NCBI GenBank assembly: GCA_037447655.1
Contig: JBBHKE010001083.1
Coordinates: forward strand, 1 to 64,000
Direction of reading: 5' to 3'
DNA from: Zygnema cylindricum
Lineage: Eukaryota; Streptophyta; Zygnematophyceae; Zygnematales; Zygnemataceae
Length of the DNA stretch: 64,000 bases
Shown here: in pieces, positions 18,643 to 61,550 of the stretch
How the letters are laid out: each line of letters opens with the position of its first letter
How positions within the stretch are numbered: the first letter of the stretch is position 1
Translations under genes and position numbers: made by a program
Notes under the pieces: model-generated
What the model was told of the DNA's origin: nothing
Databases searched by the model: none
Seen by the model: the letters and a program-made list of their open reading frames with translations, nothing else

Positions 18643-18663
18643 GCTGTCGAGTCACGGGAAATT

Positions 18664-18675: not shown

Positions 18676-18676
18676 G

Positions 18677-19831: not shown

Positions 19832-19861
19832 TCGACTAAGAGTTTTATCTCGACCTAGATG

Positions 19862-42286: not shown

Positions 42287-42346
<60 letters not shown>

Positions 42347-43387
42347 GCTGTTGCAGAATGCCCCAGCTCCAATCATCAGACACATATATTGACAAAAAAC
42401 TCGCAGATAAATTTGACCGCTAAAGGTCTGATTGATTCCTACAAACTTGCATAAACAACTTTGTAGTTGGCCACCAAGCACCTCAAGAAGTTCAGCCCGT
42501 CATAGCAAAAACCACAGCAGACTTTCTCGGTCAGGAAGAGGAAGTAAAAGCATCGAGGCCTCACGTGTTCAGGCGCCATGGTGATACTCTTTGAAGCAGG
42601 ATCTGACTCGAGCTTCAGAAGGCTCTCGTATTTTGCCAGCCGTTGTCTTAGGATGGCGTTTTCCATCGTCAACTGTGAGATCTTCTTCGTAGAGAGATCA
42701 TTCTCCTCAACCAGAAGTTTATTCAAAGCTGTCAGCTTTGAATTCATAGTTTGCAAACGGTTGGACTCCATCCGCTGCCTTTCCCGACATCTGACGAACT
42801 CAAACGTAAGATGTCAGACGTACATTTACCAGGAATTGATAACACATATACTCTGAAAGAAGTATAAATTTTAGTAGCACACAGTGACAACCTATCGTAG
42901 TTGAGAAAAGTTCTACAAAATTGGAAACCTTAGTCAAGAGTCAGAGGAATGCCCTAAACACTGATGTCAAAATTCAAACAGCCGCAACAAGAGCTAAATA
43001 ACTCCAAAGAAGCAACCTTATTTAAAAGTGCTCTTCCATTCCTTCCCCAAAAATGGTTGTCCCGCCAAAACAGCTGGCAGCAGCTGAGAATCTACCAATA
43101 ACAGCTTACGCAAAAACTGACTCAACATTCTGCAACATGGACCAGACAACAGTTACTGCCTCTCACCTCCGGTTCTGAAACCATACTTTGATCTGCTTCG
43201 GCTCAATATTAGCCAGGATTGGACACTCCTTGATGAGCTGCTGGCGACGAGCAGAACTTGGCTTGGGACACTCATTGTAGACACGCTCGAGAGCCTCGAC
43301 CTGCTCGTTACTGTAGCGTACGTACTTACCACTATCTGCCAAATTGCCTTCCGCGCCCTCGGAGCGCTCCCCGGAAGAACCAGCCAT
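34880..43387 (-). CDS. Class III HD-ZIP transcription factor, 18 exons
   Basis: Exons (high to low): 43387-43167, 42790-42565, 42347-42004, 41780-41690, 41500-41405, 41213-41100, 40941-40858, 40691-40536, 40290-40216, 38385-38276, 37904-37709, 37593-37417, 37103-37023, 36577-36440, 36322-35997, 35867-35762, 35312-35163, 35029-34880. All junctions are GT-AG and in phase, giving 946 residues (land-plant members are about 830-850; the excess includes a poly-Gln insert). Homeodomain residues about 20-80 (KYVRYSNEQVEALERVYNEC, IEPKQIKVWFQNRR); leucine zipper (LTALNKLLVEEND, LRQRLAKYESLL); START domain (LFAIAEEILAEFIAKATGTA to the VTVE region); C-terminal MEKHLA domain (LLFANQAGLEMLETTAVGLS, ERAVAWKVVDE). 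The ATG follows an in-frame TAG. The 18-exon layout equals that of Arabidopsis members. In land plants these nuclear factors set polarity, vascular and meristem fate. Least certain junctions: the exon 3 start inside CAG repeats and the exon 10 end. Confidence 0.95.
39375..39515. repeat. CT/CCCT microsatellite in HD-ZIP III intron 9
   Basis: About 140 bases of CCCTCCCT, CTCTCC and TCCC units; GA-rich on the gene's sense strand. It lies in the longest intron (1830 bp, between exons 9 and 10). Open frames through it are low-complexity artefacts. Confidence 0.9.
41489..41702 (-). promoter_or_regulatory. Position of the miR166 site: intron retained, complementarity lost
   Basis: The spliced junction of exons 4 and 5 reads TGGGATGAAG then GCAGGCAGTGAT. 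In land plants the miR165/166 target continues as CCTGGTCCGGAT after the same TGGGATGAAG, with the intron at the same place. Here the 3' half, which pairs with the miRNA 5' seed, is changed at most positions, and the encoded KPGPD becomes KAGSD. Regulation by canonical miR166 is therefore not expected. Confidence 0.8.
42294..42357 (-). repeat. CAG/CAA repeat encoding poly-glutamine in the HD-ZIP III protein
   Basis: About 21 consecutive CAA/CAG codons directly at the start of exon 3, followed by LLQSQAQVQTQAQVHAQQ. They lie between the leucine zipper and the START domain. The long run of pure CAA triplets on the coding strand suggests recent slippage. The acceptor site lies in or next to the repeat, so exon 3's start could vary. 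Confidence 0.9.
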
Positions 43388-44114
43388 GGCAACTAGCAGG
43401 AAGTTTAGCTTTACAGGACACTACAGTACAGTGTCGCAGATGCTGGAGACAATCATGTAAGTGGCAATGATGAGGATGTCGGGAGGGTCCCTCAATCATC
43501 TCTTGGGAGTACAAGAACAAAAAAACAGGCGAGTGGAGGCTCAGCCAATGAAATATCTCGTCTGCCACATCATTACAAGGAGCCAGATATCGGACGGCAC
43601 TCGCCGGTCGCGCAGGTTATGATAGCATGGACGAAAGCCCATGGACATCCTTCCCCAAAAAATCTCAAAGATTTGCTTATTGTTGCCAATAAATGGTAAT
43701 GTCGAACTCCTTCCACTGGCCGGAGCGCGGATCTCTGAAGATTTTGTGGAAAGAATATGTACATCGCCCGGCTGCCATGATAGGATGTATTCGGGCCGTC
43801 CGATCCTAAAGTGGTAATGATTGACCCGAAAATACCCCTAATACAGCCGAGCCATTATGTTTCTGACGCCGAGATGAGACATCATTACATCGTGTCGCAG
43901 TTTTCTAAGTCGCACAAAATGGAAAGAGGTCGCAAGCCCTAAGGGGTCGCGAGGTACCCGCGGCTCTCGGCCGTCAGGCTGTTACAACGCCGTTGTCGTT
44001 AGAGAACCGTACATCGTGTAAGGTCATTAGCGTCAATGCTACATCGGTGCGCCTAAATTTCACCCATCGGACGTACAATAGTGTTAATGGTATTGATTTT
44101 TATTTTCTTGACGC
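43388..44114 (-). promoter_or_regulatory. HD-ZIP III 5' flank
   Basis: Contains the presumed 5' UTR and promoter. The nearest in-frame upstream stop is a TAG about 36 bases before the ATG. No reliable TATA box or initiator could be assigned. 43900-44000 is relatively GC-rich. Confidence 0.4.
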
Positions 44115-44668
44115 TACACCGCGAATCGTTATTAGTGTCAAAGTTTAAATAGTGTTGAAGAAAATTTACCGCAATCGATGCTAAGAATTCGATGTAATTA
44201 AGAATTTGATTTTTTTTTTAAAAGGTGTATTCTAATTTCGGCATTATGCTAATTTGGGAACAGCAAAAAATGAATATTTGCTGTACGATTATATACATTA
44301 ATATATGTCTCGTAAAAAATATTAGAAATCGTACGCCGTCGTGAAATTTAAATATTCGTACATATCAGACTAATTTACGTGTCAGAATAATCCCGTTTTT
44401 TGAGCGCACGTTCCTATGCGTGCGCGTCTGATTTAATTCATTTTTTGTAAATTTTTCACTTGAAAAGGTACATTTATGTACGGTCTGACATCGACTGTAC
44501 ACCACGCTATTTAGATTCTTATTGTACTTTCGTTCTTTACGCTATTTTGTACTGTACCTTAATTAACGTCAAGGAAAAATTAAAATCATGTTTCCTATTT
44601 GAGGAAAAAATTCAAAATTTTAAGAACCCAAATTAGTGACTTTGACACTAATAACGATTCGCGGTGTA
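44115..44668. mobile_element. TIR element with perfect 30-bp inverted repeats, upstream of HD-ZIP III
   Basis: TACACCGCGAATCG... at 44115-44144 is exactly complementary to 44639-44668. The interior (554 bp in all) is AT-rich and non-coding, and is collinear with sequence from 63607 onward. That other copy begins CACTACACCGCC with TATTAGCGT behind it, reminiscent of CACTA elements. The target duplication is unclear here. The left TIR sits about 730 bp upstream of the HD-ZIP III ATG. Confidence 0.8.
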
Positions 44669-45096
44669 AATACTTGAACGGTCATTCGGAACTGCAATGC
44701 AATTAACCTCCGGAATGTTTCCTTAAGGCTAATAAGTAATAACAACACACGGTTGTGAATTTCAGCGCTGTACGGTATTGCGGCAAGGAATGATTGTTCT
44801 AGGACCCTCGCAGGCTCATCAAATTTAGCTTCGGAAACGATGGCAGATTCGGCGACGATTTTCGTGCGCGGGCGAAGCTGTTTCCGCACGTGGCAATTTT
44901 GGCAGTACACGTCCACGCGACAAATCAATTTGGGACGTTTTTGAATGGTTGTAGTTTGTTTTTCAAGAGAAACAAAAGAACCTTAACCATGCCCCAAAAA
45001 ACCTAGAATCCCGAAGGGCCCTCAAAAACCGAAAAGAACACTTTTTAAAACCCGCATGTGCTTACAACATTCTCGTTGGTTAGGAAAAAATAAATA

Positions 45097-45182
45097 TTGA
45101 GAAGACAAAGGAAAACCAAAAGTAGCAAAAAAAACTAATTGAGAAGACAAAGGAAAACCAAAAGTAGCAAAAAAAAAACTAA
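45097..45182. repeat. 43-bp tandem duplication
   Basis: TTGAGAAGACAAAGGAAAAC followed by CAAAAGTAGC and an A-run occurs twice in succession. The copies are identical except for the length of the A-run. Confidence 0.9.
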
Positions 45183-46859
45183 ATATTGGAATGAGGACGA
45201 ACCCACAAAAAACAAAAACAAAAAGTAGCTATTTCATTTGTCAGGTCTACTTAGCAATCGGCGGGTTGAAACCAAACCTAATGAAACCAAACCTGTTTTT
45301 TGGCGGTTCAGTTTGTCGTTTTGCAATGTGACATAAAACGTTTTGGGTCGGCTCCAGCGATCTTACAACCCGTTCGATTCAATTCCCTCCGGCCGAACCC
45401 GATTTGAACCGTTGAAACAACATACAGGGAAGAGACAAATGTACGGATTATTAGTTTACTATATAAAGAACAAAAAATGTAAAAAAAAGTAAGGGTGCGT
45501 CTCCATGTACTTGAAACTTAGAGAAAAAACTTTGTTTTTTAGCGCAAATCCGGCGGACCCGGATTTCGGGTGTCCCTATGTGTAACAACGACATAGTTTC
45601 TTAAGCGTGTGACGATTGTATATGCTGACAATGCTCGTGACGGCTGTCAACGTCTACAATCTGTGATGACGCACGCTATTTTTTGTAGCAGGTTGTGACG
45701 TCGCATGAGTTTTCGTGCCATTGTAGACGTACCGCCATCCATCCTGTGCCGTTTCACGGTTGAGGAAGATGCACTTTGCCTTTGCGTCTCTTGTCCACGC
45801 GACGTGAAATGGCATCGGATCTTGAGACCCCTAGCGAAATAAATCCGTAGCAGGCGCAAACAGACAAAACCAAACAAATTGTGTACTTTGCTTTGTCGTA
45901 CATGAACGCAAACGGACAAAACATAGTGGATCGTGCACTTTTCGTCGCTTGAATTCTTTTGAAATTTCCTAGAAATTTCTTACACGTGCGACTACGTGTT
46001 TTTATTTGTTTTTCGAAAAATCTTTGTTTTAAAACATATCTTCCCTGTGTTTTAAATAAAAGTTTGAAGATGACGTTTTTTGGCGTGGCCGTGGCTCGAA
46101 GAACACAAAACGACAATATGTAGTACATCATAAATTTGATGATGACGCAAAATGTACTTCTCATTTTTTTTTGTACGGTTGAAACTTACGCGATACCGCT
46201 CTAAGTTTTGTTATTCTACAACCACCGTTGCAGGAGGAGAACCAACAGTAGTAGTGGAAGTAGACATGAAACAACAGCAGAAACTATCAAAATACCTACT
46301 CAACAGCCAACTTTAAACTGACACAAAATATGACTGAGAAAGCCAATATGCCTCAAATTTGCCACAATGATACACAATACAGTAAACTGACAATTCCCAA
46401 AATTGCAGCCCAAATGACTTAGTAAACCATAAGATATGATGTCTGGAAGTTTCCTAAAAACTGCCCTTAGAAAATCATATTCCCAAAACTGGATGCTACA
46501 AAATTGGCTAAGTCCTAAGTTATATACTCACAGTGTGTATCTACTGATCTACACTAATTTGCGTAACCGTTACTACAGTTATTATCCTGACTAATGACAA
46601 AGCATCCTACCTGTACGTCACTGTACCTCAAAACCCTCATTATTATTTTCTAAAAACCTGATTAATGGAACATTATTTTTATTACACTAAACTACAAAAC
46701 AATGTTATTCAGATATTAAAAGATATTGAACCGTACACAAAACGTTCTAACCGTACACAAAACGCTCCAAATGTTTAGTCAGCGGTAGTCGCTAAAGTCC
46801 AACCGAATGCGGTCGTGTAGCACGTGAATCACGGTTGTGGTCCCTCGTGAATCACGCTT
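45183..46859. other. Intergenic DNA, no gene recognised
   Basis: AT-rich with scattered open frames lacking motifs (for example 46164-45754 minus, which is low in conserved features). A short tandem ACCGTACACAAAACG occurs twice at 46732-46765. Nothing functional is supported. Confidence 0.5.
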
Positions 46860-47600
46860 GTGTACGGACCAATCAGATTACTGTATCGTACACAAAAGTA
46901 CTACTGCCGATGTACCTTTTGTACGGCCTATGTACGACAAGGCTATTAAGTGGACGCGTGTCCGCTTTTCACTCGTCCGTACGTTCCTCAGAATTCCTAT
47001 GACCGAATGTCATCTCTCCACGTGTCTCTAGATCATGCCACGTCACAAAACGCCAAAGTGACCACTCCGGGATTTCGGCGATGATGTGCACCGTTGGATT
47101 TAATGCGAAACGCAATCTTAGCCGTAATCAATACTTGCGCGACATTTGTTCCGATTTCGAAATAAAATACGTGGTATCCGTTTTGAATTAACGTCGTACG
47201 ACGTACTTTATAAAACTGAATTTATGTATGCCGTATACAGTTATAGTTAAATGAATTTTATCCACTCGAACTAAATATATATCTATCACATACCATAGCA
47301 CTTAGCATTGGTCCTAGTCTATTAGGATAAAGCTGACCGCTACTGGTCAACTTGACGAACTGCAGGTACCGCGATCAAATCTTTGGTCCGTCAAGCATAT
47401 TTTTAGTAACCTACTAAAAATAGCTGTCTGTTGGACTAAGGCAGCCATGGATCAACCTCTCTCTCTTACCTTCAATGACTACAACAAGTATGGGAGCTAG
47501 AGAGCGGAGGTGGAGGCAGGCTGTCTGTCCTTTCCCTTTTTCCTTTTATAAAAACATATTTAAACCTAGAAAATACTCTAAAAATCTATATATTTCAACA
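46860..47600 (-). repeat. Copia LTR, subfamily A (A3), truncated
   Basis: From GTACGGACCAATCAG to TTTCAACA it follows LTR A1 (3968-4704), including the CTTGACG...GTCCGTCAAG inverted repeat at about 47352-47395. The inner third, with the gag start, is missing. Confidence 0.85.
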
Positions 47601-48101
47601 TCCGACAATTGTTCTTTATTGTACGCTACAATCTTGTGATTGGTCAGTACCTCAGTACTAGGGGGTTTAGAGAGGGGTTTAGGACTTATAATATTTTGGG
47701 TAAGTAGCCGCCTCTCTTAGAGAGCATCTTGTATAAAACGCAAACTTTGGCCAGCCATAAAAATTAATTTACTTGACCATTTTCAATGATTCTTTTTGTT
47801 GCCGCCTGAGGGGAGTCCGGGCTACACAGGGGCGTAGTCTGTCAAAGTTATTGCTTGCCAGGGTGGCTGTATTTCTAAGGGAAATTCAAAGTTGGTGAAT
47901 GTGTCCATATATCTGATATTCCAACTTTGCATTATATGGTGGAATTGAAAGTCTTATTTCACATGGGTGAAGCTGTAATGGGCTCCTGATTCTCAATGGG
48001 TCAATCATTTGGGTTTATATAAACTAGGAGTCGACACTATTTAGATTAGCTTCTTTTGATCTGCGAATTCTGTGTGGTAATGGAGCCCATAGAATTTCAG
48101 G
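47601..48101 (+). repeat. Copia LTR, subfamily B (B4), 5'-truncated
   Basis: Matches the last 500 bases of B1/B2 and ends ATGGAGCCCATAGAATTTCA, followed by the primer site GGTTATGGGCACACC (one change from Copia-A). It joins A3 directly. Confidence 0.85.
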
Positions 48102-48315
48102 TTATGGGCACACCATCTAGGGTGCTTATGTTTGATGGAACAGACTTCACTTATTGGGAGTTCACAATGGAGGGATTGCTTTTTGAAAAGCACTTATAGG
48201 GAATTGTTTCGGGACAAGGAAGGTGTCCGCCACCGAGCTTTGGAGGAACTCACTATGGAGAATCATCTGGGACTTTCCAAAAAACCAACCGGAGTAAGGA
48301 TGCAACGGAAGGTGA
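48102..48315 (+). pseudogene. Copia gag start fragment
   Basis: Continues the LTR-borne start: MGTPSRVLMFDGTDFTYWEF, TMEGLLFEKHL, stop, GIVSGQG, then a frame change. It aligns with the first 60 residues of Copia-A gag. Cut at 48315 by an inverted LTR. Confidence 0.8.
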
Positions 48316-49467
48316 TAAAACTCTGTGTGCTCCATTGCTCACAGAAATTGCAGATCCAAAAGAAGGTAATCTAGATAGTGCCGACTCCAAACTTGATATA
48401 AACCTTAATGACTGACCCCTTGAGAGTCAGAACCCCAATACAACTTCACCCTTGTGAAATAACACTTTCTGTGTGCTCAGTTCCACCACATAATGCAAAG
48501 TTAGAATATGAGATTTGGACACATTCAACCACTTTGAATTTCCCTTAGAAATGCAGCCACCCTGGCAAACAAAAACTCTGACCGACTGCACCCTTGTGTA
48601 GCTTGGACTCCTCTGAGTCCGTAGCAAAAAGAATCATTGAAAAAGGTCAAGTAAATTGATTGTTATGGCTGCCCAAAGTTAGCCTTTTATACAAGGTGCT
48701 CTCTCAAAGAGGCGACTACCTATCAGAAATATTATGAGTCTTATTCCCTCTCTAAAACCCCTTCTATTGAAGTACGACGCCAATCACAGGATTGTACCGT
48801 ACAGAAAAGTACGGGCGTCGGTGTACTTTTTGTACGGCAACTTGTTCGACAGGGCCATACAGGTGACATCTGTCACATCCGGATTTGTTATCTTGTACTC
48901 CGACAATTCCGCAAACCCGTACGATGTCACCACGTGTCATCACGAGTGATGGTGTCCGGAAAATGCCAAAACGCCTTATCCGCATCTCGGCTCCTACCAC
49001 GGCCGTTCGAAGAATACCCGAATTTAATCATAGCAGTCGAAAAGAATGTTGTTTCGATAATTCTGTGAGGTCCGGAATTTGTGCACACTAATTCATTTCC
49101 GTGTACTGCCTTTCCTGTAATCAGTTAAATGAAAGATGGTGCATATTAATGTTTATCTATTTATTGTACCCTATATTGTCTAGGAATAATCATAAACTAT
49201 ACGATGAAGCTACCGGCTGTCAGAGTCTTGACGGACGGCAGATACCAGAATCAAATTCTGGGTCCGTCAAGATCCTTTTTAGTAAAACCTACCATTATCT
49301 ACTCCTGTCTCTCTGGAGAGCTTAGGCAGCCATGGGTGTAACTCCCTTTCCAGCCTTTAGTGACTACAACAAGTGTGGGGGCTTGGAGAAGGGAGTTAGA
49401 GGCAGACTGCCTCTGCTCTTTTTCCTATAATAAAACAGACCTAGAAAATACTCAAATATCAACACTA
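48316..49467 (-). repeat. Copia LTR, subfamily B (B5), inverted
   Basis: In minus orientation it runs TGTTGATATTTGAG... to ATGGAGCACACAGAGTTTTA and is close to full length (about 1150 bp). Its last 450 bases are an inverted copy of B4. The CTTGACGGAC...GTCCGTCAAG hairpin lies at about 49229-49271. Confidence 0.85.
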
Positions 49468-49576
49468 ACAATACCCCAGTATCGTTTTTCACACAAAGCC
49501 CTTGTCATCATGGCTTCCCAATAGATAAACCTTGATCCATTAAAGGTGGGCACCCTAGAGGGTAAGCCCATAACCT
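49468..49576 (-). pseudogene. Copia gag N-terminal fragment with primer site
   Basis: Minus strand: primer site GGTTATGGGCTTACC, then gag residues matching FNGSRFIYWEAM and EKRYWGIVS of Copia-A. It is truncated at the outer end of LTR B5. Confidence 0.8.
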
Positions 49577-50115
49577 GCAATTTTGTGTCCTCCATTGGAC
49601 TACAAAATTCAGGAAGCCTCTACATAGATGTTAACTAACCCACTTTCAATGGCAACCACTGCCGCCTTAGCAAACAAGTTGATAATCTGACTGCACCTCT
49701 GTGCAGCCTGGACTCCCCTAAGTCTGTAGGAAAAGAATCTCTGAAAAACGCCCAACCAGGCGATAAGTTATAGGGTGGCAAAGATGCCAATATATACAAA
49801 CTCTAAAAGAGAGAGAAGACCATCTAACAAATTTTTCTAAGACCTAGTTCCCTCTCATAGCCCTTATCTACTAACTGAACGAACCAATCAGAACACTCTA
49901 CAGTACAAGAAAGTACTAGTGTCGATGTACTTTTTCTACGGCCTTTGTACGACAAGGCCATTAAGCGGACGCGTGTCCACTTTTCAGTCGTCCGTACGTT
50001 CCTCGGAATTCCCGCGACCGAATGTTATCTCTCCACGTGGCGCTAGGTCATGCCACGTCACAAAATGCCAAAGTGACCATTCCAGGATCTCGGCGATGAT
50101 GTGTGCCGTTGGATA
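49577..50115 (-). repeat. Copia LTR, subfamily A (A4), truncated
   Basis: Collinear with 3668-4190 of A1, with the gag ATG (MEDTKLQ) in its end. Stops at CCGTTGGAT, the same point at which LTR A2 is interrupted by C1. Confidence 0.85.
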
Positions 50116-50446
50116 TTATAACTCTCACAAGTGCCTTTTTCTTGCCTCCTTAAGATCCACCAGTTTAACTCTCCTTGAGCCTCAACTCCGTTAACTTGGT
50201 GCACTCCGCCATCTAGTGACCAGGTTTCTTCCAAAAGTGACAAAGTCCTTTTGGGGTTCTCGCTCTTGCGGGCTGATTTCCCCCTCCGCCAAAACTTCCA
50301 TAAGATTTCTTATGGTCGTTGCATCGATTTATCCTGGAGGCCAAGGCTTGTACACTTTTTCCTCCTCTCCGCATCTCAATGGTGTTTTTTCGGACGAGAA
50401 TCATTGTGACAACTGAGTTTTAAATCCACAGGTTGTCGTCAAGATC
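50116..50446 (-). pseudogene. Copia gag C-terminal fragment
   Basis: Minus strand: VVTMILVRKNTIEMRRGGKS, then KGLCHFWKKPGH, stop, MAECTKLTELRL. The zinc knuckle has its second Cys changed to Trp and is interrupted by TAG, so it is dead. Equivalent to 8110-8340 of Copia-A. Confidence 0.8.
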
Positions 50447-51500
50447 TGTTGTTCTTTGGTCCAAAATAGACCGCAGAAGCCACCTAAACTATCAAACAAC
50501 ATGTTAAGCAAAGTTATGCTAATGAACAATCATTTGAAATGCACCCTCCATTTAACATACATGCATACACAGATGCAATCGTTCATCCGCACACAGGCGG
50601 AGCAATCATCCGTACACAGACGGAGCAAGCATGCATACACAGATGCATGAATAACATTTAGGGTTACATGAAAATCACAAGAAACCCTAAGACAAATGCA
50701 TAAATAATGCATATCAAACAAACATAAAATTAACACATATAAATAATAATAATTGAATGCATCAACTATAAACAACAGTATAATCAGATGATAAATGTAT
50801 CATTTAAATGCATGACCTAATCGCCAACCCTAAAAGTCTACATCTTCGGTCCCTACTTTTCATGCTAAGCATTAATGATTATTCCTAACAAAGCTCATTC
50901 CTATATATACACTTGTGAGCTGTCAACGAATCACTAAGTTTCAAAATAACCAACATACATTACGTAACTGTCATTAAGTCCTATTTAACCAAAATAGCCC
51001 AATTACTAAGAATAAACTAATCGTAAGCGTACACCTGAAAGTCAAGCAATCGTAAGCGTACACTTGTCTGCAAATACAACACATAAATTAAAGTGTTGAT
51101 ATCCTCATTGATCACGTAAAATATAACAATTTTAATCAACACTAAATCATTAGTTCGCATAAAACAAAATATTGATGTTTCAAATATATACACCGACGCA
51201 TCCACAAATCCGCGTCATACGTGACAACTTGCTTAGTCACTTGTCGATGAGTCCACGCAACAAGCCGATATCACATACGTACGGCCCACTTGATCAACCA
51301 TCCTCAAAATAGTGTGAACCATCAAAAGCGGCGGACGCCTCAAAGTACTACACAATCCACTGTCGAAACCATACGGTACCATCCAAATATTGTCCGTACC
51401 AAAACCACGTACTTCGTCATAAATGCGCCTTGTCGCATATAAGGTACACGTCATTTTCGATAAATGCCTGTCGCAAATAAAGTACACTTAATAGTACACC
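50447..51500. mobile_element. Non-coding element C, copy 2 (right end truncated)
   Basis: Begins TGTTGTTCTTTGGTCCAAAATAGACCGCAG, as C1, and follows it block by block: AACAATCATTTGAAATGCA, GCATGACCTAATCG-CAACCCTAAAA, ACACTTGTGAGCTGTCAA, CAAATATATACACC-ACGC. It has no nested LTR. Homology fades at about 51480-51500, where the methyltransferase-like frame begins, so the C terminus AACAACA is missing. Confidence 0.75.
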
Positions 51501-52350
51501 TGTCCAAAATATTATGTGAGTATGCGTGAGAGTGTGGATATGCAACTAGTGTAGGTTGTGCACGTAGTGGCTGGCCTGGGATGTTAAGACCAAATGCAGG
51601 AGGATAGTCTGTCAGTATACATGTTTGGACTTTATGAAATGGAAGAAGTGCATCTTGAATGGAAAGGTTAGGTGGTCGGACAGCGAGGTTAGCCTCTCGG
51701 AGCTGACCCATGTCCACCAGGTTAGTCCACTTAGAACGAACCCGGTGGGCCAGCGAACCGTGGCGTGCGGCATCAATGATCAGTGGTGGTCCAATTAATG
51801 ATTGAATGCGTTTATAAACTGCGAGGACCGCGAAAAACAACTTAGTACGTGGATCTGCGAGACCTGAACCTTTCCCGGCCCTAGACATACCCTGACATTC
51901 CCATCCGGCAAAGAGGAGATCAATTGGCTCCAATTCCATTAGATGATGATTTCCGTTTCGATGGATATCCTGTGGCAAAGCCGAATGCATGTCGTGAAAC
52001 GCAGATTGGGGTAAGAGCTGAGGATACTGTTCATGCAAGACTTGACAGTGGTGCAGCTGAGCGCGTCCGGCCAATGGGTCAATATCCACGGAATAGTAAT
52101 GCTTTATCAGAAGACCATTATGAAGGCAAGAGAGAAGTGAAGTCCCTATTCCTGCAAAAAGGTCTAAAATAACGAGACCGTTTTTGTGAGGTTGTAAATT
52201 GCCCAGTGTCCATTCAATGGGCAAGAACCCGGAAGGATCTATCGTAATGGAGGGTGGATCTAGAATACTAGATAAAGGAATTGGTATAGTAAATTTATAT
52301 AGTCGGTTAAAATCTGAAGAGTCAATGGTAAATCCGGGTGTACTAAATAA
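51501..52350 (-). pseudogene. C5-cytosine DNA methyltransferase-like domain of a retroelement
   Basis: An open frame from a TAA at 52351 down past 51501, with no ATG in the part shown, so probably part of a polyprotein. Motif I: VILDLFAGIGTSLL. Motif II/III region: HYYSVDIDPLAGRA and LPQDI. Motif IV: LLFAGWECQGMSRAG, where the catalytic Cys is kept but the Pro of the usual PCQ is Glu. Then GSGLADPRTKLFFAVLAVY. Motif VI (ENV) is absent: the chain passes straight to GPPLIIDAARHGSLAHRVRS and KWTNL, resembling the AHRARYFWGNL block of DNMT3/DRM enzymes. Motifs IX-X are missing because the sequence is cut by element C2. Such enzymes methylate DNA cytosine at C5; this copy is very probably inactive. 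Lies directly behind a retropepsin and gag on the same strand. Confidence 0.8.
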
Positions 52351-52512
52351 TTATGGTAAACTTGGGGAATTTGGTGAGATTTCATCCGTGGTTAGTGATT
52401 TAAGGAGGTCCTCACCTATGCCCACTGCGGCATAGGCTGGCAAGATCAATGCCGAATGGGCCGTAGTAGGCATGGGTTCCCGGGCCGGGATAAGGGGTAA
52501 GCAAATTTTACG
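52351..52512 (-). other. Spacer between protease and methyltransferase-like domain
   Basis: About 160 bases with stops in all three minus frames. One frame reads YPGPGTHAYYGPFGIDLASL, which could be decayed linker coding sequence. Confidence 0.5.
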
Positions 52513-53390
52513 TTACGGGAAGTTGTTAGGTCTGTACGAAAATGTATGATCGTGCATATCAACCCCCTCCCCAACTCGAAAAATAACATCTTGACCAACG
52601 AAGCATTCATAGTCACTACACTTGGTGACCAAGGCATGAGCATAAATTTCTGCGAAATCCGTCGCTGACTGACTCTGAAATTGAAAACAGATTGGTTCTA
52701 TCGTAATACCGAGGACTGGCTCTGTGGTACCTGCGGAAGTCAATAGACGTGTGGTAGTGGGTTTTAGCTTATCTGCTATAAGACCTATTTTGATGGCAAA
52801 ATCAGAACCGAGGATAATTGGCTTTGCGCCTGTATCCATGAGAGGAAGTGCCAGAGCAAACCCATTAACCGTAAATACGCCCAATTTGTTATCTAGAAAA
52901 CTGATGTGAGGGGTGAGGCTAGACCGCTCTTCAAGAGTAATAGCTTGAAGGGAGAGAGCATTACGATGGTTTTGTAATGCATGTAACGCAACTGTTGAAG
53001 GAGTTAGATCTACCGTTGTGTCAATGCTATCTAACTCTGGGAGCATGGTGGACAAGATTGACAAACGTTCTTTGACCTTATAGGTGTCTTGTATGCTCCT
53101 CTCTAAAATAGTTAATGCTTCAGCGGTAATGCTAGAGGCCGTTTCTGGAATAGGTGAGCTGGGTTCTTTAGCAAATGATAGTGGGATACGAGTGTTAATG
53201 GATTTTGACTCGCGATTATGATCGGGATTCCCTTTAAATTGAGATGCCCGTTGTTGGACGGTGGACTCCCGAAGAGGTCGCCCAGCAAAAGAAGGCATAT
53301 GGACCACAATTCGGGCCATTCCGGTTAATTGCGGTTTGACCGCCAAGCGACAACTCTTATCTGCATGTAGCCTGCGGTCGGCTTTCTCTG
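52513..53390 (-). pseudogene. Retropepsin-like protease region of the same retroelement
   Basis: 277 open residues from 53346, extendable upstream to about 53390 (PNPEKADRRLHADKSCRLAV). The active site is ALPLMDTGAKPIILGSDFAI (DTG). Further hallmarks are LLTSAGTTEPVLGITIEPI and LVTKCSDYECFVGQDVIF, then TFSYRPN before the stop. The protease matures gag-pol. This pattern (DTGA, TSAG, LG.T, VGQ, YRP) differs from the Gypsy-2, Gypsy-3 and Copia-A proteases, so the element is a separate lineage. Confidence 0.8.
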
Positions 53391-53529
53391 GGTTTGGGAT
53401 GACGCTCTCTAACGGGTGGGTGACAATTTTTGGCGGCGGTGCGTTTTTGGTGCTGGTAGGATTCTATCCATCGATGTACATAACCCTGTTTGATTACAAT
53501 ACACATGTATATCTCAAGCAATATCACCT

Positions 53530-54190
53530 CCACATCGAAAGTATGCATAATGTTCCCGCCCATCCGGTGGTCTCGGATTAGGCCATGGGTTGCGTGGATT
53601 AAGATTAGGATTCAGGTTTGCATTAGAAGAAGATTTGGGTCGCTCATGAGCGTCCCACCAGCTGGTCTGCATTTCATACCGTACGGCATACTATGCATCC
53701 TGCTCGAAGGTGAATTTGAGGCCATATGCCTCAATCAAATGGCTTTGAATGAAACGTCGAGATTGGGTGGGAAATTGCCCCACAAAATTTTGAACTGCCT
53801 CTGCGTTTCAAATGCCTCTGCGTTTGACATGAGATCTGGTAGTGCTTCGCGTAATGTTTCCATATACGCCCGCAATGTCGGGGCGGTTTTGCCTGGGCGA
53901 CGTTCGAAATTCATTAGTTCTTTAACCTGATCGGGGTTCTGCATTCGGTACTCTTCGTGTAATAAACTGAAAACAAATGATACTGGATCCCTCAAAGGAA
54001 CTAACATTGCAGGGCGGGCTGGAATTCCAGCCCGAGCCGCAACGGCGAATTGATGAGGGACCGCAGGTATTTCAGGTGAAATTTCGTTGCCTGCAGAGTT
54101 ATAAACTGCGGGTACAGCAGCTTGGAAAAGAATTTCTGGAATGCCTGTTATGGCTAAAGATCCAGAATATGCGGGTGCCATTTTTGTCAT
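53530..54190 (-). pseudogene. Gag of the methyltransferase-bearing retroelement
   Basis: 54190-53735 is open for 151 residues (start MTKMAPAYSGSL); its capsid-like tail is VKELMNFERRPGKTAPTLRA, YMETLREALPDLM. After a frameshift near 53745 it continues SHLIEAYGLKFTFEQDA, stop, YEMQTSWWDAHERPKSSSNA, then an Asn/Pro-rich linker and YFRCGGDIA, stop, DIHVYC. The last part looks like a decayed zinc knuckle. It is followed in the same direction by the protease, giving gag-pro-methyltransferase order. Confidence 0.72.
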
Positions 54191-54334
54191 AGCACAAATT
54201 ACCGTTTATTTTCATGTATATAGAGATAGGGCAGATCCTCTAAGGTATCGCCAAAGTAACGGAAAAGCAACCCGTAAATCATAACGACCTTGATACCGAA
54301 ATGCGAGATCGCGCATCTCGGTATCAAAAAGCAT

Positions 54335-54805
54335 TCAAAAATGTGACAAAGACATACTGTCATTGAGACCTGAAAAACAAAACTGATTTCTACGTCTTCC
54401 GGTGTCTATGGACGAGGCCATATCCACAAAATAGGAATCGGAGTTAGTGTGTATATTTTCGCTCAAAGGAAAAAGCGAACGTGGTAGATTTAGATCCCGG
54501 ATATCAAGGGAGTCTATGTCTGAATCTTCCCCCCAGCTATCGAAAAAGGATGAAGAGACAGATGAAGTAGATCTATACGTGCTGGTAATACCAGATCTAG
54601 AGTCGGGTGAACCCGTGAGATGAGACTGAGCAAACTGACCAGTATGACCTAAAAGCTGGACAAGAGGTGAGTGGGCGGGAATCAAATCCCGATCCGGTCC
54701 ACGGTAAAGACTGGAGCTCCTAGTGGTACCAGCTGGAAACGATAAATTGTTCCAGTTTGTTGGCATGTAAACAGACAGTAGTCCGGTCGTCCTATCTGGA
54801 TGCAA
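54335..54805 (-). CDS. Open frame upstream of the gag, unknown
   Basis: 156 residues, Ser/Asp-rich, with SVSSSFFDSWGEDSDIDSLD and NIHTNSDSYFVDMASSIDTG. No domain is recognised. It has the same strand as the gag and lies 145 bases upstream of it, with several stops between. It could be an N-terminal gag extension, a separate element ORF, or chance. The start shown (TTG/ATG choice) is unproven. Confidence 0.3.
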   Translation of the reverse strand: MHPDRTTGLLSVYMPTNWNNLSFPAGTTRSSSLYRGPDRDLIPAHSPLVQLLGHTGQFAQSHLTGSPDSRSGITSTYRSTSSVSSSFFDSWGEDSDIDSLDIRDLNLPRSLFPLSENIHTNSDSYFVDMASSIDTGRRRNQFCFSGLNDSMSLSHF

Positions 54806-55059
54806 CTAGATGCCGGACCCTACTCATGGTCAGTGGTCATATGCCCACTGCCAGATCTATTGATCAAGTCACACAGGAAGTCTTTAAATTCACGCAAACA
54901 GGAACCCACTCAACCAGGCACCCCCAAACGATTTGATCTATACTGTATCACCGGGGTTAGTGTAATCGTGAACACCCCTAACAAGGCTGTCACAGCCAGA
55001 TCTAAGCAATACCACAATAAGTCACTTCAAGCCACTCCAAGAAGAAACATGTCACCTAT

Positions 55060-55180
55060 GCAAGGCCACTTTTGGCCAGATTTAATAAAACAGAAAACTA
55101 TTCAAGGCCCACAAGGCCAGATGTAGTAAACAGGAAATTATCCTGGCCCAACAAGGCCAGATGTAATAGACAAGAAGTCG
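55060..55180. repeat. About 40-bp tandem repeat, three units
   Basis: GGCCAGATKTAATA-AACAG(G)AAA recurs at 55074, 55115 and 55155, a spacing of 41 and 40 bases. It lies upstream of the methyltransferase-bearing element and may belong to its leader or LTR. Confidence 0.75.
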
Positions 55181-56354
55181 CTATCTAAGACCAATCACGG
55201 TCAGAACTAAAGAAAATGCAACCATTATGCCTATGCGAAAAGGAAGGCACGGCCTTCGGTCGGATCCTAACCCCGCTAGGTTATCGCGCTTAACAACCTA
55301 CCACGCGTCTGCAACCACAAGGACTCGATTACTCACGTGGAGCGGTCTGTAAGGTCTCCCAGCGATGCTCCAACCTCCCTCCAATTTTGAATCGTCGAGA
55401 AGAGATCATAACTCAAAATACCAACGTAGTTAGTAGCCTGTTAGGGCACGCGTATCAGCACTATGCCACGCTCTGCCCGTCTATAAAGCAATGATAATTT
55501 TCATGATAATTCTTGCAACCTAATATTTTTATATATATTTTTAGGTTTTTTTTTTTTTTAATTTTTATTTTGTAAGAAGTTTTTAAGTTTTCTAGGTTTT
55601 CTGAGTGAGTTAATTCGGCAGGAAGAAAGAAGAGAAAACGATACCGGACAGTTCAACAATCTCAAATCCAACAACTCAAAAACCAATTATGCAACAAATA
55701 AAATGAAAACAACGAAAAAAATAAATATATATATATATATATATTTTTTTCCTTTGACTACTACTAATTCAAAACAACTAGACAAGAGACACAAGGAATA
55801 AAGAAAATTAGAAATGAAATGAATTAAAATAAACTAGACATAAGAAAACAATTGACACAAGGAATAAAGAAAATTAGAAAGATAACAAATTAAGTATGGG
55901 AATATTTGCGACAGTAGCCCCTAGGCCCTGAAGTCATCAATATTTCCTACAGGAGTCTAATGAGCTGGTAAGAACCCTTCCTTAGTCGGATGAAAGAGCC
56001 GAGATAATCGGTATTCCTCCAAGGCCAGACAAGGTAAGCTCCAACCTGTACGGTCAGCGTCCGGACCGCAAGAAAACACCAAGTCCACAGACACAATTCA
56101 CAAATCACAACAAGTAGAATATAGTCTGGAGGGAAACCTTGTAGGCTGGCTTGCGCCGATAGATTAGGTAAGGTCTTAGTATAAAAAGAAGGAAAAACAC
56201 AGAGACAATTACTAGGATAGACCATGGGTCTGAAAAGAAAAACCCTAACTCAAAACTAGCCTGTCCCTAAATATTACGTGGAAACCCTAAGAGCACAAGG
56301 TTCGACAAATCCCGAGAAAAAGCGTGCCAGAAAACGACAACCTTCCAATGTTGG
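55181..56354. other. Unassigned stretch, possibly LTR/leader of the methyltransferase element
   Basis: 55260-55480 is relatively GC-rich (CCCCGCTAGGTTATCGCGC). 55720-55745 is a short (TA)n with a T-run. No matching second LTR is present in the window, so an LTR cannot be proven. Confidence 0.4.
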
Positions 56355-56416
56355 ATTCCCGTACTTAATTTGCAAAAGTTACTATCTCCCGTACTTAATT
56401 TGCAAAAGTTACTATC
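56355..56416. repeat. 31-bp perfect tandem duplication
   Basis: CCCGTACTTAATTTGC followed by AAAAGTTACTATCTC occurs twice in succession. Confidence 0.9.
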
Positions 56417-59400
56417 TCGCCAAATGGCATATATCCTATGCTTTCACTAATCCGTATGGCTACACTAATTCCTACATGTCTTTGAGCAGGCAGGTTTCTA
56501 TGTGAAAACGCTGCCAATTTCAAGAGACGACCGCTGCGTGGCCGCCTCTGATTGCTTTACATCTACACCTCGAGGATTAAAACCCTCCGTAAGCTAAGCA
56601 AAAATGATGCATGAACCTCCAAGGGTTCATGACTTCAAACACCTGTCAGGTTAGTAGCCGTTTGAATTTCTGACGTCTGATGTTGTACCGTGGTCCAGTT
56701 CCACGCTGATTTCACATCGTGTTCCTGTGGTGCCGTACTAGAGTATATTTCGACTTTTGTCCCGTACGAATCTCTAGTTGTGCTCTCGGATATGTACCTG
56801 TCACGTCACCGAAACTTCAATTAGTACACGATTTAATCACAATACCCGCTGACGTCTTACGGCATGATATCCATGAAGCGTTCGGCGCTTGATATACGCC
56901 ATCGATTTGTATTTTTTCTACTATTGATGTTATTGCTCAAATATTTATAATGCAAAAACATATACTAATTAGGTAAACTCTTTTGTAATGAAATGACTAA
57001 ACAAAAAATTTAAATTTAAAAATAGCAAGATTGTCCATGTTGCGTACCTTGTTGAGCAAAAAAATAAATGTTTATGTATGATACGATGGATTATTTTCTT
57101 ATATAGTTAGTTAAGGTACATAAAACCCAACGAATGTGGATGAACTAAAGATTTACGAAACAAAAACTCTAAGGTGAGGGTGACCTAAAGTAATTTAAAC
57201 AAAATTTAACATAATACTGACTACGTAGCATATCATGTAAAATTGTACAATAATACTGAATGGGTCGCAATACAACTTATTAAGTAATACTCGTAAAAAT
57301 AGTTTAGTCGGAGGCAAAATCAAACTAACTATTAGTTTAATTTATATACGTTAACATTTTCGCAAAAAAAAAATAGGTTTTGACTTTACTAACTTGAAAA
57401 AAATCCGATCTAGTAAGAAAAAACATGCTTTTGGTGTAACGAACTATTTGGTGCATGGATTGTAAAAGCCAATTCATGTTTTTTACCATCAATAACTTTT
57501 CATATACTTGTTATAAAAATACAAATAAATATATATACACATATATATATGTTTTTTTTTGTTTCACGACTTGACGAGTGACAAACCTTTAAGAATAAAT
57601 GTTGATATATTGGTTAAATAACTTTCTATTTATAACATTAAGAACATTATTTTCAAATTTTTACAAAAATAATTAAGCATTCTAGGTTTATGTATATATA
57701 TATATGTATATATATATATACATATATATATACAAATACATATATATTTATATGAATATATAAATACATATATATGTGTATATAAGTAGATATAATATGT
57801 AAGGTTTTTGAAAGTTAGAGACTAGTTACAATTACAGTTCTTACAAAAGGTCACGCGATAAATTATTCGATCGATTTTTTTTTTTTACCATTCAATTTGA
57901 TATCTAGATAATTATTAAAATTTGTAACTGGTTAAACAAAAACAAATGTGGTCGATGTATTGAGAATAAACGAATAAATATTTACAACGATATATTGGTG
58001 TATATATTGTCTTAGTATATACTGATAATGTATATTATACAATGTAACACCATAAACATTAAGTAGTATGTCATGTGAAGTATCATCGTCCAGTCTGTTA
58101 TTTGTAGAACGAAAATACAAAACCTTGGTCTCGATTACGTATTAGTAACATAATAGAAATCTTACTTCATTAAAAGAATGCACAACCTTTTGGTTCATAC
58201 AAAAACATCATCTCCCCTAAAATGACAACAATACTAGAGTTTACAATTTTATACTTTCCAATAAGTAAATAAACAAAATGTAAGTACAAAAATTCGTACA
58301 AAAACTTCCTCTCTTATAAAAAAGACAACTAATAAGTCGATAAAAAGAATGTAAGTATTAAACATAGAAGATCGTTTGTACAGTTAAATTAGAACTTTCA
58401 TCAAAACCTCACCATGGTAAAAACGCCACTATTAATATTTTTTTCGATAGATAAAAATCAAGTTACCTCTATTAAATAAAAAATATATTATGCGGTAAAA
58501 AATAATAAACAATTATAGGTTAGATGACATTTTGTGAAAATGATACATACGCATGGAAACCATTCAAACCGTACAAAAATATATAAAATCCAAACCAACC
58601 AACGTAATATTTGTTATCGACATATGCGTTCAATATAACAATAAAATAGCGCAATAACCTCGTCATTATAACGAGCTGGTTTGTCTACGATATTCCCCAT
58701 CGTTGTTATAACTAAATATTTTGGCTAACTCTTCAACATTAAGATGGACCGTTGGATCATTTTTTTGCGCCAAACAATTAGAAGATAACGGTATCAATCT
58801 TTGATTGAGATCTCACTATTGAAGACCTTAAAAAAACCGTGACGAGAAAAGAACTTCGATTGTCGCAAACTGTTGTACTCTATCGATGGGGGGGTACATA
58901 TTGATTGATAAACAACATTGACCCGAATGGTAATTTCAGATGGAGAAGTTTGTCACACTGCCAACAAAAATAAACAGATGAAAAAAACATGTAGATTACA
59001 ATAAGTTAATAGCAAGTTTCACGCGTTACAACTTTTGGTGGTATCAACTCTTGAATAGTAAATCATTTTTCCTAAAATAAGTCCTTCACCGATTTCTCGT
59101 TGCTTCTTATCATTGAATTTCCGCAGGTATAATTTTGTTATCCTTACAGTCCATCGAGTTTTTTTAAAAGGGCGTTTTGTGATCTATGAATACCCCGCTA
59201 GCTCTTGGATGGCCCAAATGTATAGAATTTGGGCAATATACAAAATGTGTGTTTTTCTCGCAATATAAGGATTTAATATACTTTACGTAGTGTTTAATTA
59301 CAATTACATATCGTAATATTGCAATATCAACAAATAAATGACGAAACGATAGCTCACTTAATATGTTGCCTGCATATCGCGATCATTGATACCCCAAATA

Positions 59401-61550
59401 ATTATTTTTGGTTATCGACAAAATTTGTTCGATCTACAACACTACGGTATTGTATTTACGAGAGAGCATGGATGTCTAAGTTGAAAAAAAATATTGGTGA
59501 AATTTTTGAGACACTTTTTTTAGCGTCAATATTACTAGATTATTGACCCAAATGTGGGGGTTCATGCAATATATAATTTTTCAGAAAATTAAAATAGCTC
59601 GTAAAATCAAGTATTCTAAAAATATTTATGTTTTTCTTGTGTGTTTAATTTTATTTTCGCTTTTAGCCATGAACGAATAGTGAATGACGAATATTGCAAA
59701 GGCCGTAGTATTGGTTAATCATGTTTATGACCCGTTTTTTTGACCCCAAAACGCCCTTGATGGAGTATAGTCCTCGTTGCAATTTTTGGTGCCACATACA
59801 TTTGACGGAAATATAACCGAATGGTAAGGCTTTCAGATTGGGCCACATTTTGCGAGGTTTTTGATCATCTTGTTGCATGTGACCACCCAAAAAAGATATA
59901 ACTATAATAGCTCATTGATTACGATTGACACAAAAAATCAAGTGAGTCTTTAAAGATGTAGCGATGACCTAAAGATGATCCCAATGGGTTCTATTATCAT
60001 TAATATTCCGCTCGGTTCTACTATATTACAAAAACAATATGTGTAGCTTGGCGTGATTTGTTTAGTTAGGCGTATCGTTGCCCATGACGCTATACGAAAA
60101 CGATATGTCGGTCACATAATATACTTCTCTAAGAAGTTACTTTTACGTTGCAATCGTTGAGAGGTGAATTTTGCTAATTGATATTCATTCGAGGTTTACG
60201 AGCGTTAATTATGGGTTTGTGAGAATTCCCTCGCAGCGTACCAGGAATTAAATTTCCTTGAAAGAAGCTCCCACCTTTAACATTTGTAGCGTAATGGGTA
60301 TTAGGTGTCCTTTGAAGAAGCTCTCACGTTTTATGTTTTACCCGTGTTCCGATTTTTGAAAACAAAGTCGTCAGTTAAAGTTGTCACATTTATATACTTT
60401 AAGCATTTTCTCGAATTGGAAACATCATGTTTTTAAATACGTTGCAAACATTTAGTTTATTGAGACATTGTCGATGTCATGGTATTTCGTCAATGTCTGT
60501 AACTTAAAAATATAACCGCTAAATGACAAAAATAGCCAAAAAAAAAATAGTCGAAGTTACTTTTTTCAGAAATGCATTTTGTTTTTCTTTATTTCAAAAA
60601 TGGGTCGCTAGGATAGGGTGAGGGGAGGTCAAAGATCCCGTTATTTTTTTCTTCGAAAATGCGCGCTATAGGCAAAAAGCGAAAATATTGGTTTTTCGTC
60701 TCTTGTTCAAAATATTGAAATTTAGGATACTTGCAAAACAATTTTTGAGTTCTTTAGAAAAGTGTCACTTTGAGCTAAACTAGCTCTCACGGTTGTTGAC
60801 GTCCAAGTCTAAAGACGTGTTGCCATGACAAGGTAATCAATGTAAAAAAAATAAAAATAAAACAGAATGACATAAAAATTTAAAGTAAGGCTTAAATTAA
60901 ATTTCTGCCTCTTCGGTTTCTTTATTCTTGCAAGTCAAAAATGTAACACGGGTGGGGGGTGTAATATGGGTTTTGTGATTGTTGAAGACAAAATGTCACA
61001 CTATTGATGAATGTAAACAACTTCTTAAGAGAATGGGAGATGAGGTTTCAACTCCCTCAAAACTTTGTAGAGGTGTTAAAAGTTGCCCTAACTATTTTGT
61101 TGGTTGTTTCCTCTCTTCCACCTCCACAACACCCCATCAAACCTTTTTTTCCTCCTAAGTTTATTATCGTACCAATACCTTTTCCACCTCAATACCCCTG
61201 ACAACCCCCCCCCCCCAATGACACAACCTTTTATAATTCTTGTTTTTTTTTTGCCATGCATGCGTTTTTTTCTGAATTTCAAATACATTCATTTCATAAA
61301 CCAACCCACGTAGCCCTTCTCCCACTCCAAATTTGGATTCGACAATATTGTTTAAGATATTTTCGAACCACTTATATCAATATTCGATTTCCATAAGGGT
61401 ATTTTTTTTTCAAACTCCACTGATTATGGTTGATTAATTCATAGCGCTTGTCAATCCTCACCTCTACGCACCGCCTGATTAGTAAACTCACCCTTATCTT
61501 TTATGCACTTATATGTAGATTTTTTAGAAAAAGACTGTATCTTACTGACC
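56417..61550. other. AT-rich gene-poor region
   Basis: No open frame with recognisable motifs on either strand. Contains a TATATA/TACATA microsatellite at about 57690-57790, a pyrimidine-rich stretch at 61100-61215 with a C-run, and many A/T homopolymers. I see no gene, RNA or element boundary. Confidence 0.5.
57690..57790. repeat. TATA/TACATA microsatellite
   Basis: About 100 bases of TATATATA, TATGTATA and ATACATAT units. Confidence 0.9.

What the first reader, a model, noticed from the sequence alone, without database searches (positions are those of the whole stretch)
51501..54190. Retroelement remnant with gag, protease and a cytosine-methyltransferase-like domain
Seen: on one strand and in order, a gag-like frame with a decayed zinc knuckle, a DTG protease of a type unlike the other three elements here, and a frame with C5-methyltransferase motifs (DLFAGIGTSLL; GWECQGMSRAG). 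Known: capture of DNA methyltransferases by retrotransposons has been reported in dinoflagellates and charophytes and proposed to let elements methylate their own copies. Inferred: this is a relic of such an element, possibly of a separate lineage, truncated at its 3' side so that RT and integrase are missing.
Basis: partly seen in the sequence, partly recalled or inferred. Interest (0 to 1): 0.88.

Follow-up and report, generated by a model that had tools for sequence, protein, structure and literature searches.

The report
Dead methyltransferase-carrying retrotransposon; intact relatives found
The stretch is the broken remains of a jumping gene that carries its own DNA-methylating enzyme, and intact relatives elsewhere in the same plant-lineage genome show how the whole element is built.

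Summary
The minus-strand frame matches PF00145 (9.2e-10) and shares one reading frame with the protease, broken by two stops. The relic is larger than stated, 56869-51511: from the 5' terminal repeat to a break inside the methyltransferase, with motif VI deleted. The host genome (353 Mb, streptophyte) holds many relatives: 118 of 118 scored matches at E<1e-148, 21 without stops. Intact copies encode gag, zinc knuckle, protease, DNMT, RT, RNase H, integrase and a PHD finger; one has a 2395-aa frame and 931-bp repeats 100% identical, hence probably a recent insertion. The DNMT is DNMT3-type by profile (1.1e-25; named DRM2 4.6e-11) and by predicted fold of a relative. Relatives in other sources, Closterium included, form one RT clade whose DNMT diverged in step. 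Termini are DIRS-like split repeats with TG...CA ends, a palindromic junction and 4-bp duplications in 3 of 4 copies. Closest known: KnitGypsy-Dnmt3 of Klebsormidium. Known kind; new host, PHD finger, ECQ motif and integration evidence.

The parts
51511..56869 (-). whole relic of the DNMT-carrying Gypsy-type retrotransposon, 5' end at 56869, truncated at 51511
   Evidence: blastn against intact copies C1344 and C1407: 92% (51511-51830), 91% (51831-53341), 90.1% (53569-54427), 79-90% further 5'; the alignments end at 56867 or 56877 and the decayed start TATCATGCCG is at 56869
55903..56869 (-). terminal repeat A1 (start TATCATGCCG against TGTCATGCCG in intact copies)
   Evidence: aligns to A1 and A2 of C1344
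55022..55902 (-). 5' leader with tandem repeats, rearranged; 54785-55021 does not align
   Evidence: aligns in pieces to C1344 between 86445 and 87503
53569..54784 (-). gag frame with stops and a frameshift; 54428-54694 does not align to the intact copy
53478..53543 (-). decayed CCHC zinc knuckle (YFRCGGDIA*DIHVYCNQTGLC)
   Evidence: translation; the intact copy has ICFRCGNTGHDARSC, PF00098 0.0044, below its cut-off
53342..53568 (-). segment that fails to align by blastn, about 130 bp shorter than in the intact copy
52516..53463 (-). protease frame (PLMDTGAK at 52845-52822)
   Evidence: gap-free alignment of 52516-53341 to the intact copy
52513..52515 (-). first in-frame stop between protease and DNMT
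52351..52353 (-). second in-frame stop before the DNMT
51511..52182 (-). DNMT3-type cytosine-5 methyltransferase domain, 3' truncated (motif IX/X region missing)
   Evidence: PF00145 9.2e-10; 94% aa identity to the intact copy over 221 columns
52132..52164 (-). motif I DLFAGIGTSLL
51889..51906 (-). motif IV GWECQG with the catalytic cysteine (ECQ instead of PCQ)
51830..51831 (-). point of a 93-bp in-frame deletion that removed motif VI (ILENIAAYN in the intact copy)
   Evidence: C1344 90697-90789 absent; two-piece matches in relatives; alignment
51727..51750 (-). motif VIII AHRVRSKW

Best explanation
The window holds a dead, 3'-truncated copy of a Ty3/Gypsy-type retrotransposon family that captured a DNMT3-type cytosine methyltransferase. 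The most complete relative makes one polyprotein: gag, zinc knuckles, protease, DNMT, RT, RNase H, DDE integrase, PHD finger (shown). Because the DNMT is made in one chain with RT, it should be packaged with the element's cDNA. The most likely mechanism is that it methylates that cDNA (probably at CG) before or at integration, and that the PHD finger steers the integrase complex to a chosen chromatin state (both inferred). Reverse transcription appears to be primed at a G-rich tract just before repeat B, so that B.A is the LTR equivalent. The integrase uses a site inside this unit, at the palindrome GACA-GC-TGTC, giving TG...CA ends and 4-bp target duplications; this produces the split-repeat form A-internal-B-A-B (anatomy shown in several copies, mechanism inferred). 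The window copy cannot work: it lacks motif VI, everything 3' of the target-recognition region, and an unbroken frame.
For: PF00145 match. Architecture of C1344: RVT_1 8.7e-30, RNase H 6.2e-35, rve 3.6e-12, PHD 4e-10, DNMT 1.1e-11. DNMT3 affinity of intact domains: DNMT3A 9.3e-11 against HhaI 2e-3; profile of 11 relatives DNMT3A 1.1e-25 against 3.7e-14 for 4onj (recalled as tobacco DRM; labelled only 'DNA methyltransferase') and 4.6e-11 for DRM2; AF2 model of the P0002 domain, pLDDT 90.6, whose 50 listed PDB fold matches are all DNMT3 or DNMT3-complex entries. Catalytic Cys in 25 of 25 aligned domains; motif VI EN in 24 of 24 besides the relic. DNMT dN 0.115-0.183 between subfamilies with dS saturated; four close pairs 0.16-0.42; relic against C1344 0.16 and 0.12. 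RT and DNMT distances of 21 rows: r=0.79, 0 of 5000 permutations as high. Termini: A1/A2 931 bp 100% identical in C1344; B1-GC-A2 junction in 6 of 10 fetched contigs; duplications in 3 of 4 split-repeat copies with both ends in hand; G-rich tract before B1 in 5 of 6.
Against: No activity was measured. ECQ replaces PCQ/PCN, so catalysis may be altered; the K. nitens DNMT gave no methylation in yeast, judged inconclusive by its authors (PMC5890265). The relic alone, without motif VI, ranks HhaI (0.0083) slightly above DNMT3A (0.028). DNMT dN/dS reaches 0.42, one integrase pair 0.50, and protease pairs range from 0.07 to 0.93. C449 has TCAT/GCAT at its ends; C783 has A-start and B-end without an internal B-A junction or duplication; C1112 is inverted; C2577 lacks A2; C82 showed no junction. 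No tRNA primer-binding site was seen, by eye only. C-to-T changes in the relic are raised in CG and CHG alike, which fits ordinary host silencing and gives no special trace of self-methylation.
Confidence: 0.6

Rival explanations
1. A host DNMT3 pseudogene happens to lie beside an unrelated gag-protease relic.
For: The relic alone shows no RT and its protease scores below Pfam cut-offs.
Against: Protease and DNMT share one frame, and the same fusion recurs in full-length copies and in other sources.
Confidence: 0.01
2. The DNMT acts on RNA (the element's genomic RNA, the primer tRNA or RNA:DNA hybrids) rather than on double-stranded cDNA.
For: Made in one chain with RT; ECQ variant; no yeast DNA methylation seen for the Klebsormidium enzyme.
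Against: Sequence and fold are DNMT3-like; the best tRNA cytosine-38 (DNMT2-type) chain scores 1.2e-8 against 1.1e-25 for DNMT3A.
Confidence: 0.12
3. The domain no longer methylates; it is kept as a binding or structural part of the polyprotein.
For: ECQ instead of PCQ in 21 of 25 domains; higher dN than RT.
Against: Catalytic Cys in 25 of 25 and EN of motif VI in 24 of 24 besides the relic, across deep divergence.
Confidence: 0.15
4. The DNMT serves to silence the element or rival elements and so limits damage to the host, rather than hiding cDNA.
For: De Mendoza 2018 raise a benefit of this sort to the host; relic C-to-T excess in CG and CHG.
Against: At least 118 DNMT-bearing places and one insertion with identical repeats argue against strong self-restraint.
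Confidence: 0.15
5. The termini are ordinary LTRs blurred by nested insertions rather than true split repeats.
For: C783, C1112, C2577 and C82 depart from the pattern.
Against: The same 18-base B1-GC-A2 junction core in 6 contigs and matching 4-bp duplications in 3.
Confidence: 0.08

Closest known systems
KnitGypsy-Dnmt3 of Klebsormidium nitens (de Mendoza et al. 2018, PMC5890265)
   Same: DNMT3-type domain inside the Pol polyprotein of a Gypsy element; repeats arranged as in DIRS elements; purifying selection
   Different: Different host genome, 353 Mb here. 'PHD' does not occur in the paper's main text (figures not held). ECQ, 4-bp duplications and a palindromic junction are not in the sections and passages read. 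Sequences and copy numbers not compared.
Closterium sp. NIES-53/NIES-54 unnamed proteins (P0013, P0018, P0021)
   Same: protease-DNMT-RT-RNase H-integrase order in P0013 and P0018 (P0021 starts at the DNMT), ECQ
   Different: 45-48% identity over 30-36% of the query in the best local alignment; no PHD found by profile
ENA metagenome polyprotein P0002 (2358 aa)
   Same: same order including the C-terminal PHD; with P0024 next to this family in the DNMT tree, and in the same supported RT group
   Different: 68% identity over 38% of the query; organism unknown
SymbioDIRS-Dnmt3 (PMC5890265)
   Same: DNMT3 in a Pol frame, split repeats
   Different: tyrosine recombinase instead of a DDE integrase; the authors call the charophyte capture independent
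Plant DNMT3 and DRM host enzymes (PMC6453930)
   Same: DNMT3-type catalytic domain
   Different: host genes; DNMT3 with DUF3444, DRM with rearranged motifs (passages)

Membership tests
DNMT-carrying Gypsy element (KnitGypsy-Dnmt3 kind) | DNMT3-type domain fused in the Gypsy polyprotein | tested here: met
   intact copies of the same family; the window copy itself keeps only gag remains, the protease and part of the DNMT
DNMT-carrying Gypsy element (KnitGypsy-Dnmt3 kind) | DIRS-like A-internal-B-A-B repeats | tested here: met
   B1-A2 junction in 6 of 10 fetched contigs; the window copy keeps only A1
DNMT-carrying Gypsy element (KnitGypsy-Dnmt3 kind) | sequence kinship with KnitGypsy-Dnmt3 itself | not testable with these tools
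   its sequence is not held under that name; an unnamed relative in a MAG contig (L041, 47%) was found
Ty3/Gypsy (Metaviridae) | order gag-PR-RT-RH-IN with Gypsy-type RT/RNase H and DDE integrase | tested here: met
   (PF00078, PF17917, PF17919, PF17921, PF00665); met in intact copies, not in the window copy
Ty3/Gypsy (Metaviridae) | two plain LTRs at the ends | tested here: not met
   split repeats instead
DIRS | tyrosine recombinase, no target duplication | tested here: not met
   rve present, no PF00589 among matches at E up to 1; 4-bp duplications in 3 of 4
DNMT3 | unpermuted motif order and closest to DNMT3 by profile and fold | tested here: met
   for intact relatives; the relic alone does not separate DNMT3A from HhaI
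DRM | circularly permuted motifs | tested here: not met
   linear I-IV-VI-VIII-IX/X order; the best stretches of 4onj and DRM2 cover profile positions 4-135 and 5-134 only
DNMT3 | de novo methylation activity | not testable with these tools
   no assay

The most novel reading that the evidence does not exclude
A single ancient capture founded a lasting clade of Gypsy elements, known here from streptophyte algae and unnamed environmental sources, that carry a methylation writer (DNMT3 with an ECQ active-site motif) and, in some (8 of the 24 DNMT bearers), a histone reader (PHD). The DNMT later moved once, from upstream of RT to downstream of RNase H. These elements form DIRS-like split repeats yet integrate by a DDE integrase acting on a palindrome inside the LTR equivalent, most simply from a two-LTR-like circle. 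Newly inserted copies would thus arrive pre-marked in chosen chromatin.
Probability: 0.4. Interest if true: 0.8.

Novelty: new member of a known kind. Interest (0 to 1): 0.62.

Why it matters
It takes a retrotransposon class reported from one charophyte (and, in other element classes, dinoflagellates) and shows it as an old clade with a probably recent insertion, present in at least one more streptophyte genome, in Closterium and in environmental samples. The methylase has been kept under selection together with RT. That makes 'why would a transposon carry the enzyme used to silence transposons' directly testable, and the combination of split repeats, DDE integrase and target duplications bears on how such elements replicate.

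Tried and rejected
Rejected: a chance pseudogene beside a gag relic (full-length fused copies). A bacterial or viral origin of the DNMT: in IMG/VR only 12 distant loci of 28-35% identity with the profile and none with the relic; in the prokaryote genome set 18 loci, 17 of them at 23-46% over part or all of the domain and one (L041, 47% over the full length) that itself shows protease-DNMT-RT, hence almost certainly eukaryotic DNA binned into a cyanobacterial MAG. The best fold match in the viral library was weaker than DNMT3 (2.3e-16, TM 0.59, against 4.9e-19, TM 0.69).

Led nowhere: single-sequence AF2 of the relic (pLDDT 31, discarded); two protein searches with the relic (no hit; the first could not see long polyproteins by its length rule); Rfam; Pfam scans for RT traces around the relic. 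Not done because the genome search gave results only twice: a genome-wide count of B1-A2 junctions, host DNMT3 (PF11926), flagellar genes for host taxon, RT copies without DNMT. The host is called 'streptophyte' on the strength of a class III HD-Zip-type gene in the window (that this class is streptophyte-specific is recalled) and could be an alga or a land plant.
Full report
What is in the window. On the minus strand, frame 51451-52350 scores 38.9 bits against PF00145 (E 9.2e-10, cut-off 22) and matches TIGR00675 at 1.1e-08, below its cut-off. The protease frame 52513-53463 lies in the same reading frame, with two stops between. In 500 dinucleotide shuffles of the 2013 bases the best frame had at least 12 stops, against 3 observed, one of them the closing stop. 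The protease by itself is weak (Asp_protease_2 0.015; ApRick protease in PDB 0.053), and the gag frames have no Pfam match. These two identifications rest on alignment to intact copies.

Intact copies. A search of the window's own genome (352.8 Mb, 2689 contigs) with the relic frame gave 261 matches, counted as pieces, not copies, with 131 of 1692 candidates scored. With an intact domain as query 118 of 118 scored candidates (1874 in the first look) matched, the weakest at 9.1e-149, 21 of the 118 rows without a stop, some of them partial (counted from the table). I fetched ten contigs. In C1344 one frame of 2395 aa carries zinc knuckle (PF00098 0.0044) and protease (0.008), both under their cut-offs, then PF00145 (1.1e-11), RVT_1 (8.7e-30), RNase H (6.2e-35 and 9e-31), integrase H2C2 and rve (1.4e-15, 3.6e-12) and a C-terminal PHD finger (4e-10); gag by position lies before them. 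C1407 (two frames) and C1915 (several frames) give the same order. C449 gives zinc knuckle, protease, DNMT, RT and RNase H in one frame; its integrase was found by tblastn with one stop, and its 3' frame was not scanned with Pfam.

Extent and state of the relic. Against C1344 and C1407 the relic runs from 56869 (decayed start of terminal repeat A1) to 51511, where it stops inside the DNMT. A 93-bp stretch holding motif VI is missing at 51830/51831. Relatives match the relic frame in two pieces, 48-78 bases apart in the ten contigs I checked in the table, and an undeleted query matches in one piece. Pfam scans found no RT, RNase H or integrase on the minus strand from 37501 to 57500 or the plus strand from 47501 to 57500; they are blunt, since the same scan missed the protease. 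By blastn, window 46001-60000 has no match to C1344 beyond 91106 other than repeat A. dN/dS of relic against C1344 is 0.16 over 501 codons and 0.12 over 105 codons, so the lineage was under constraint until late.

Kind of methyltransferase. The relic alone is ambiguous in PDB (HhaI 0.0083, DNMT3A 0.028). The intact C1344 domain matches DNMT3A at 9.3e-11, DNMT3C and 3B next, HhaI at 2e-3. A profile of 11 relatives gives DNMT3A 1.1e-25, 4onj (labelled 'DNA methyltransferase', recalled as tobacco DRM) 3.7e-14, DRM2 4.6e-11, HaeIII 7.7e-10. An AlphaFold2 model of the P0002 domain (pLDDT 90.6) has DNMT3 chains or DNMT3-complex entries in all 50 listed PDB rows, of 202 with E up to 0.001. The catalytic Cys is kept in 25 of 25 aligned domains; the triplet is ECQ in 21, PCQ in 3, SCQ in 1; EN of motif VI is kept in 24 of 24 besides the relic. 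Motif names are from my own knowledge of the family.

Relatives elsewhere. A search with the C1344 DNMT-RT part gave 238 proteins, 120 listed. By profile 24 of these 120 carry the DNMT: upstream of RT in 18, downstream of RNase H in 5 (P0015, P0016, P0020, P0023, P0026; before an integrase in four, none found in P0020), and P0024 has no RT in its record. PHD fingers were found in 11 of the 120, 8 of them DNMT bearers. In an RT tree of 38 rows (4 own copies and 34 of the 120, chosen by me: DNMT bearers plus comparators; RT pieces outside 180-330 aa dropped) 28 rows form one clade at 99/98. Of its 24 database rows 20 carry DNMT, and in the other 4 (P0009, P0012, P0027, P0029) RT begins within 107 residues of the protein's start, so they are probably cut off. 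Ten rows fall outside, among them Chara braunii P0028 without DNMT, and one DNMT bearer, P0031, on a very long branch. The query favoured DNMT bearers, so DNMT-free sisters may be under-represented. The DNMT tree (25 rows; P0004, P0017, P0019 and P0025 dropped as under 250 aa) shows matching subclades, the downstream class at 100/100 against 98/98 for RT. RT and DNMT distances over 21 shared rows correlate at 0.79 (rank correlation 0.60), with 0 of 5000 permutations reaching the first.

Selection. Among six stop-free copies (C1407 left out as a near duplicate of C1344) DNMT dN between subfamilies is 0.115-0.183 with dS saturated; the four computable close pairs give 0.16, 0.29, 0.30 and 0.42. 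RT dN between subfamilies is 0.041-0.076 and its close pairs give 0.04 and 0.13. The one computable integrase pair gives 0.50. Protease pairs range from 0.07 to 0.93; four of the five computable pairs with C783 are 0.70-0.93, and that copy's protease matches only in part. So the DNMT is conserved, less tightly than RT.

Termini. In C1344 A1 (85514-86444) and A2 (94981-95911) are identical over 931 bp; B1 and B2 are 99.6% alike. The B1-A2 junction CATGCACGACA-GC-TGTCATGCCG contains the palindrome GACAGCTGTC and was seen in 6 of 10 fetched contigs (C1344, C1407, C449, C1915, C232, C1413). Ends are TGTC...GACA. Four-base duplications flank C1344 (TTGG), C1915 (CCCT) and C232 (CCAT), not C449 (TCAT/GCAT). 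C783 has an A start and a B end without internal junction or duplication, C1112 is inverted, C2577 lacks A2 and C82 showed none in the stretch fetched. A G-rich tract stands just before B1 in 5 of 6. I read it as a polypurine tract, which makes B.A the LTR equivalent with the integrase site inside it. This mechanism is inference.

Methylation trace. C-to-T changes in the relic relative to C1344: CG 51 of 434, CHG 55 of 439, CHH 75 of 1141; in the other direction CG 17 of 369, CHG 18 of 349, CHH 74 of 1213. The relic was probably methylated in CG and CHG, as expected of plant-type silencing; this is one pair of copies.

Literature. PMC5890265 (sections 9-11 and passages read) reports KnitGypsy-Dnmt3 with Gypsy domains and DIRS-like repeats, and 'PHD' does not occur in its main text. 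PMC12344493 (passages) mentions DNMT3 within 'LTR Copia and DIRS' elements. PMC6338049 (passages) says DNA-methylase transposons are not present in land plants such as tracheophytes. PMC6453930 (passages) describes plant DNMT3 and DRM. In the listings of searches (titles and abstract starts) I saw no paper describing DNMT-Gypsy elements in Closterium or with a PHD finger; two further searches timed out. The library holds open-licence papers only.

Verdict. The finding is right, and the element is a member of a published kind. The points I did not find described are the host, the probably recent insertion, the PHD finger, the ECQ motif, two positions of the DNMT, and the integration evidence.

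Noticed in passing
window 34.9-43.4 kb, minus strand: A class III HD-Zip-type gene (homeodomain 1.4e-13, START 8e-10, MEKHLA 4.3e-13, bZIP weak) split into exons; marks the host as a streptophyte.
   Followed up: partly
window 30664-31224, plus strand: 186-aa frame that looks like a linker histone H1 (by eye; not tested).
   Followed up: no
window 5589-9073 and 14271-20371, minus strand: Other retroelement frames, by eye Copia-type and Gypsy-type.
   Followed up: no
window 47611-48097 and 48318-48812: Inverted repeat of about 490 bp, 81% identical, within a patch of repeats shared with 3.5-12.8 kb.
   Followed up: no
L041 (CADCWO010000201.1, 'Synechococcales cyanobacterium' MAG) 2-2989: Protease-DNMT(PCQ)-RT element, 47% identical to P0002 over the DNMT: almost certainly eukaryotic retrotransposon DNA in a bacterial bin.
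   Followed up: partly
P0015, P0016, P0020, P0023, P0026: A second architecture with the DNMT downstream of RNase H, a clade in both trees.
   Followed up: partly
P0023: Element polyprotein that also carries a G-patch domain PF01585 by precomputed annotation.
   Followed up: no
G000:C783:160262-169595: Copy with an A start and a B end but no internal B-A pair and no target duplication: possibly a product of recombination between B repeats.
   Followed up: no
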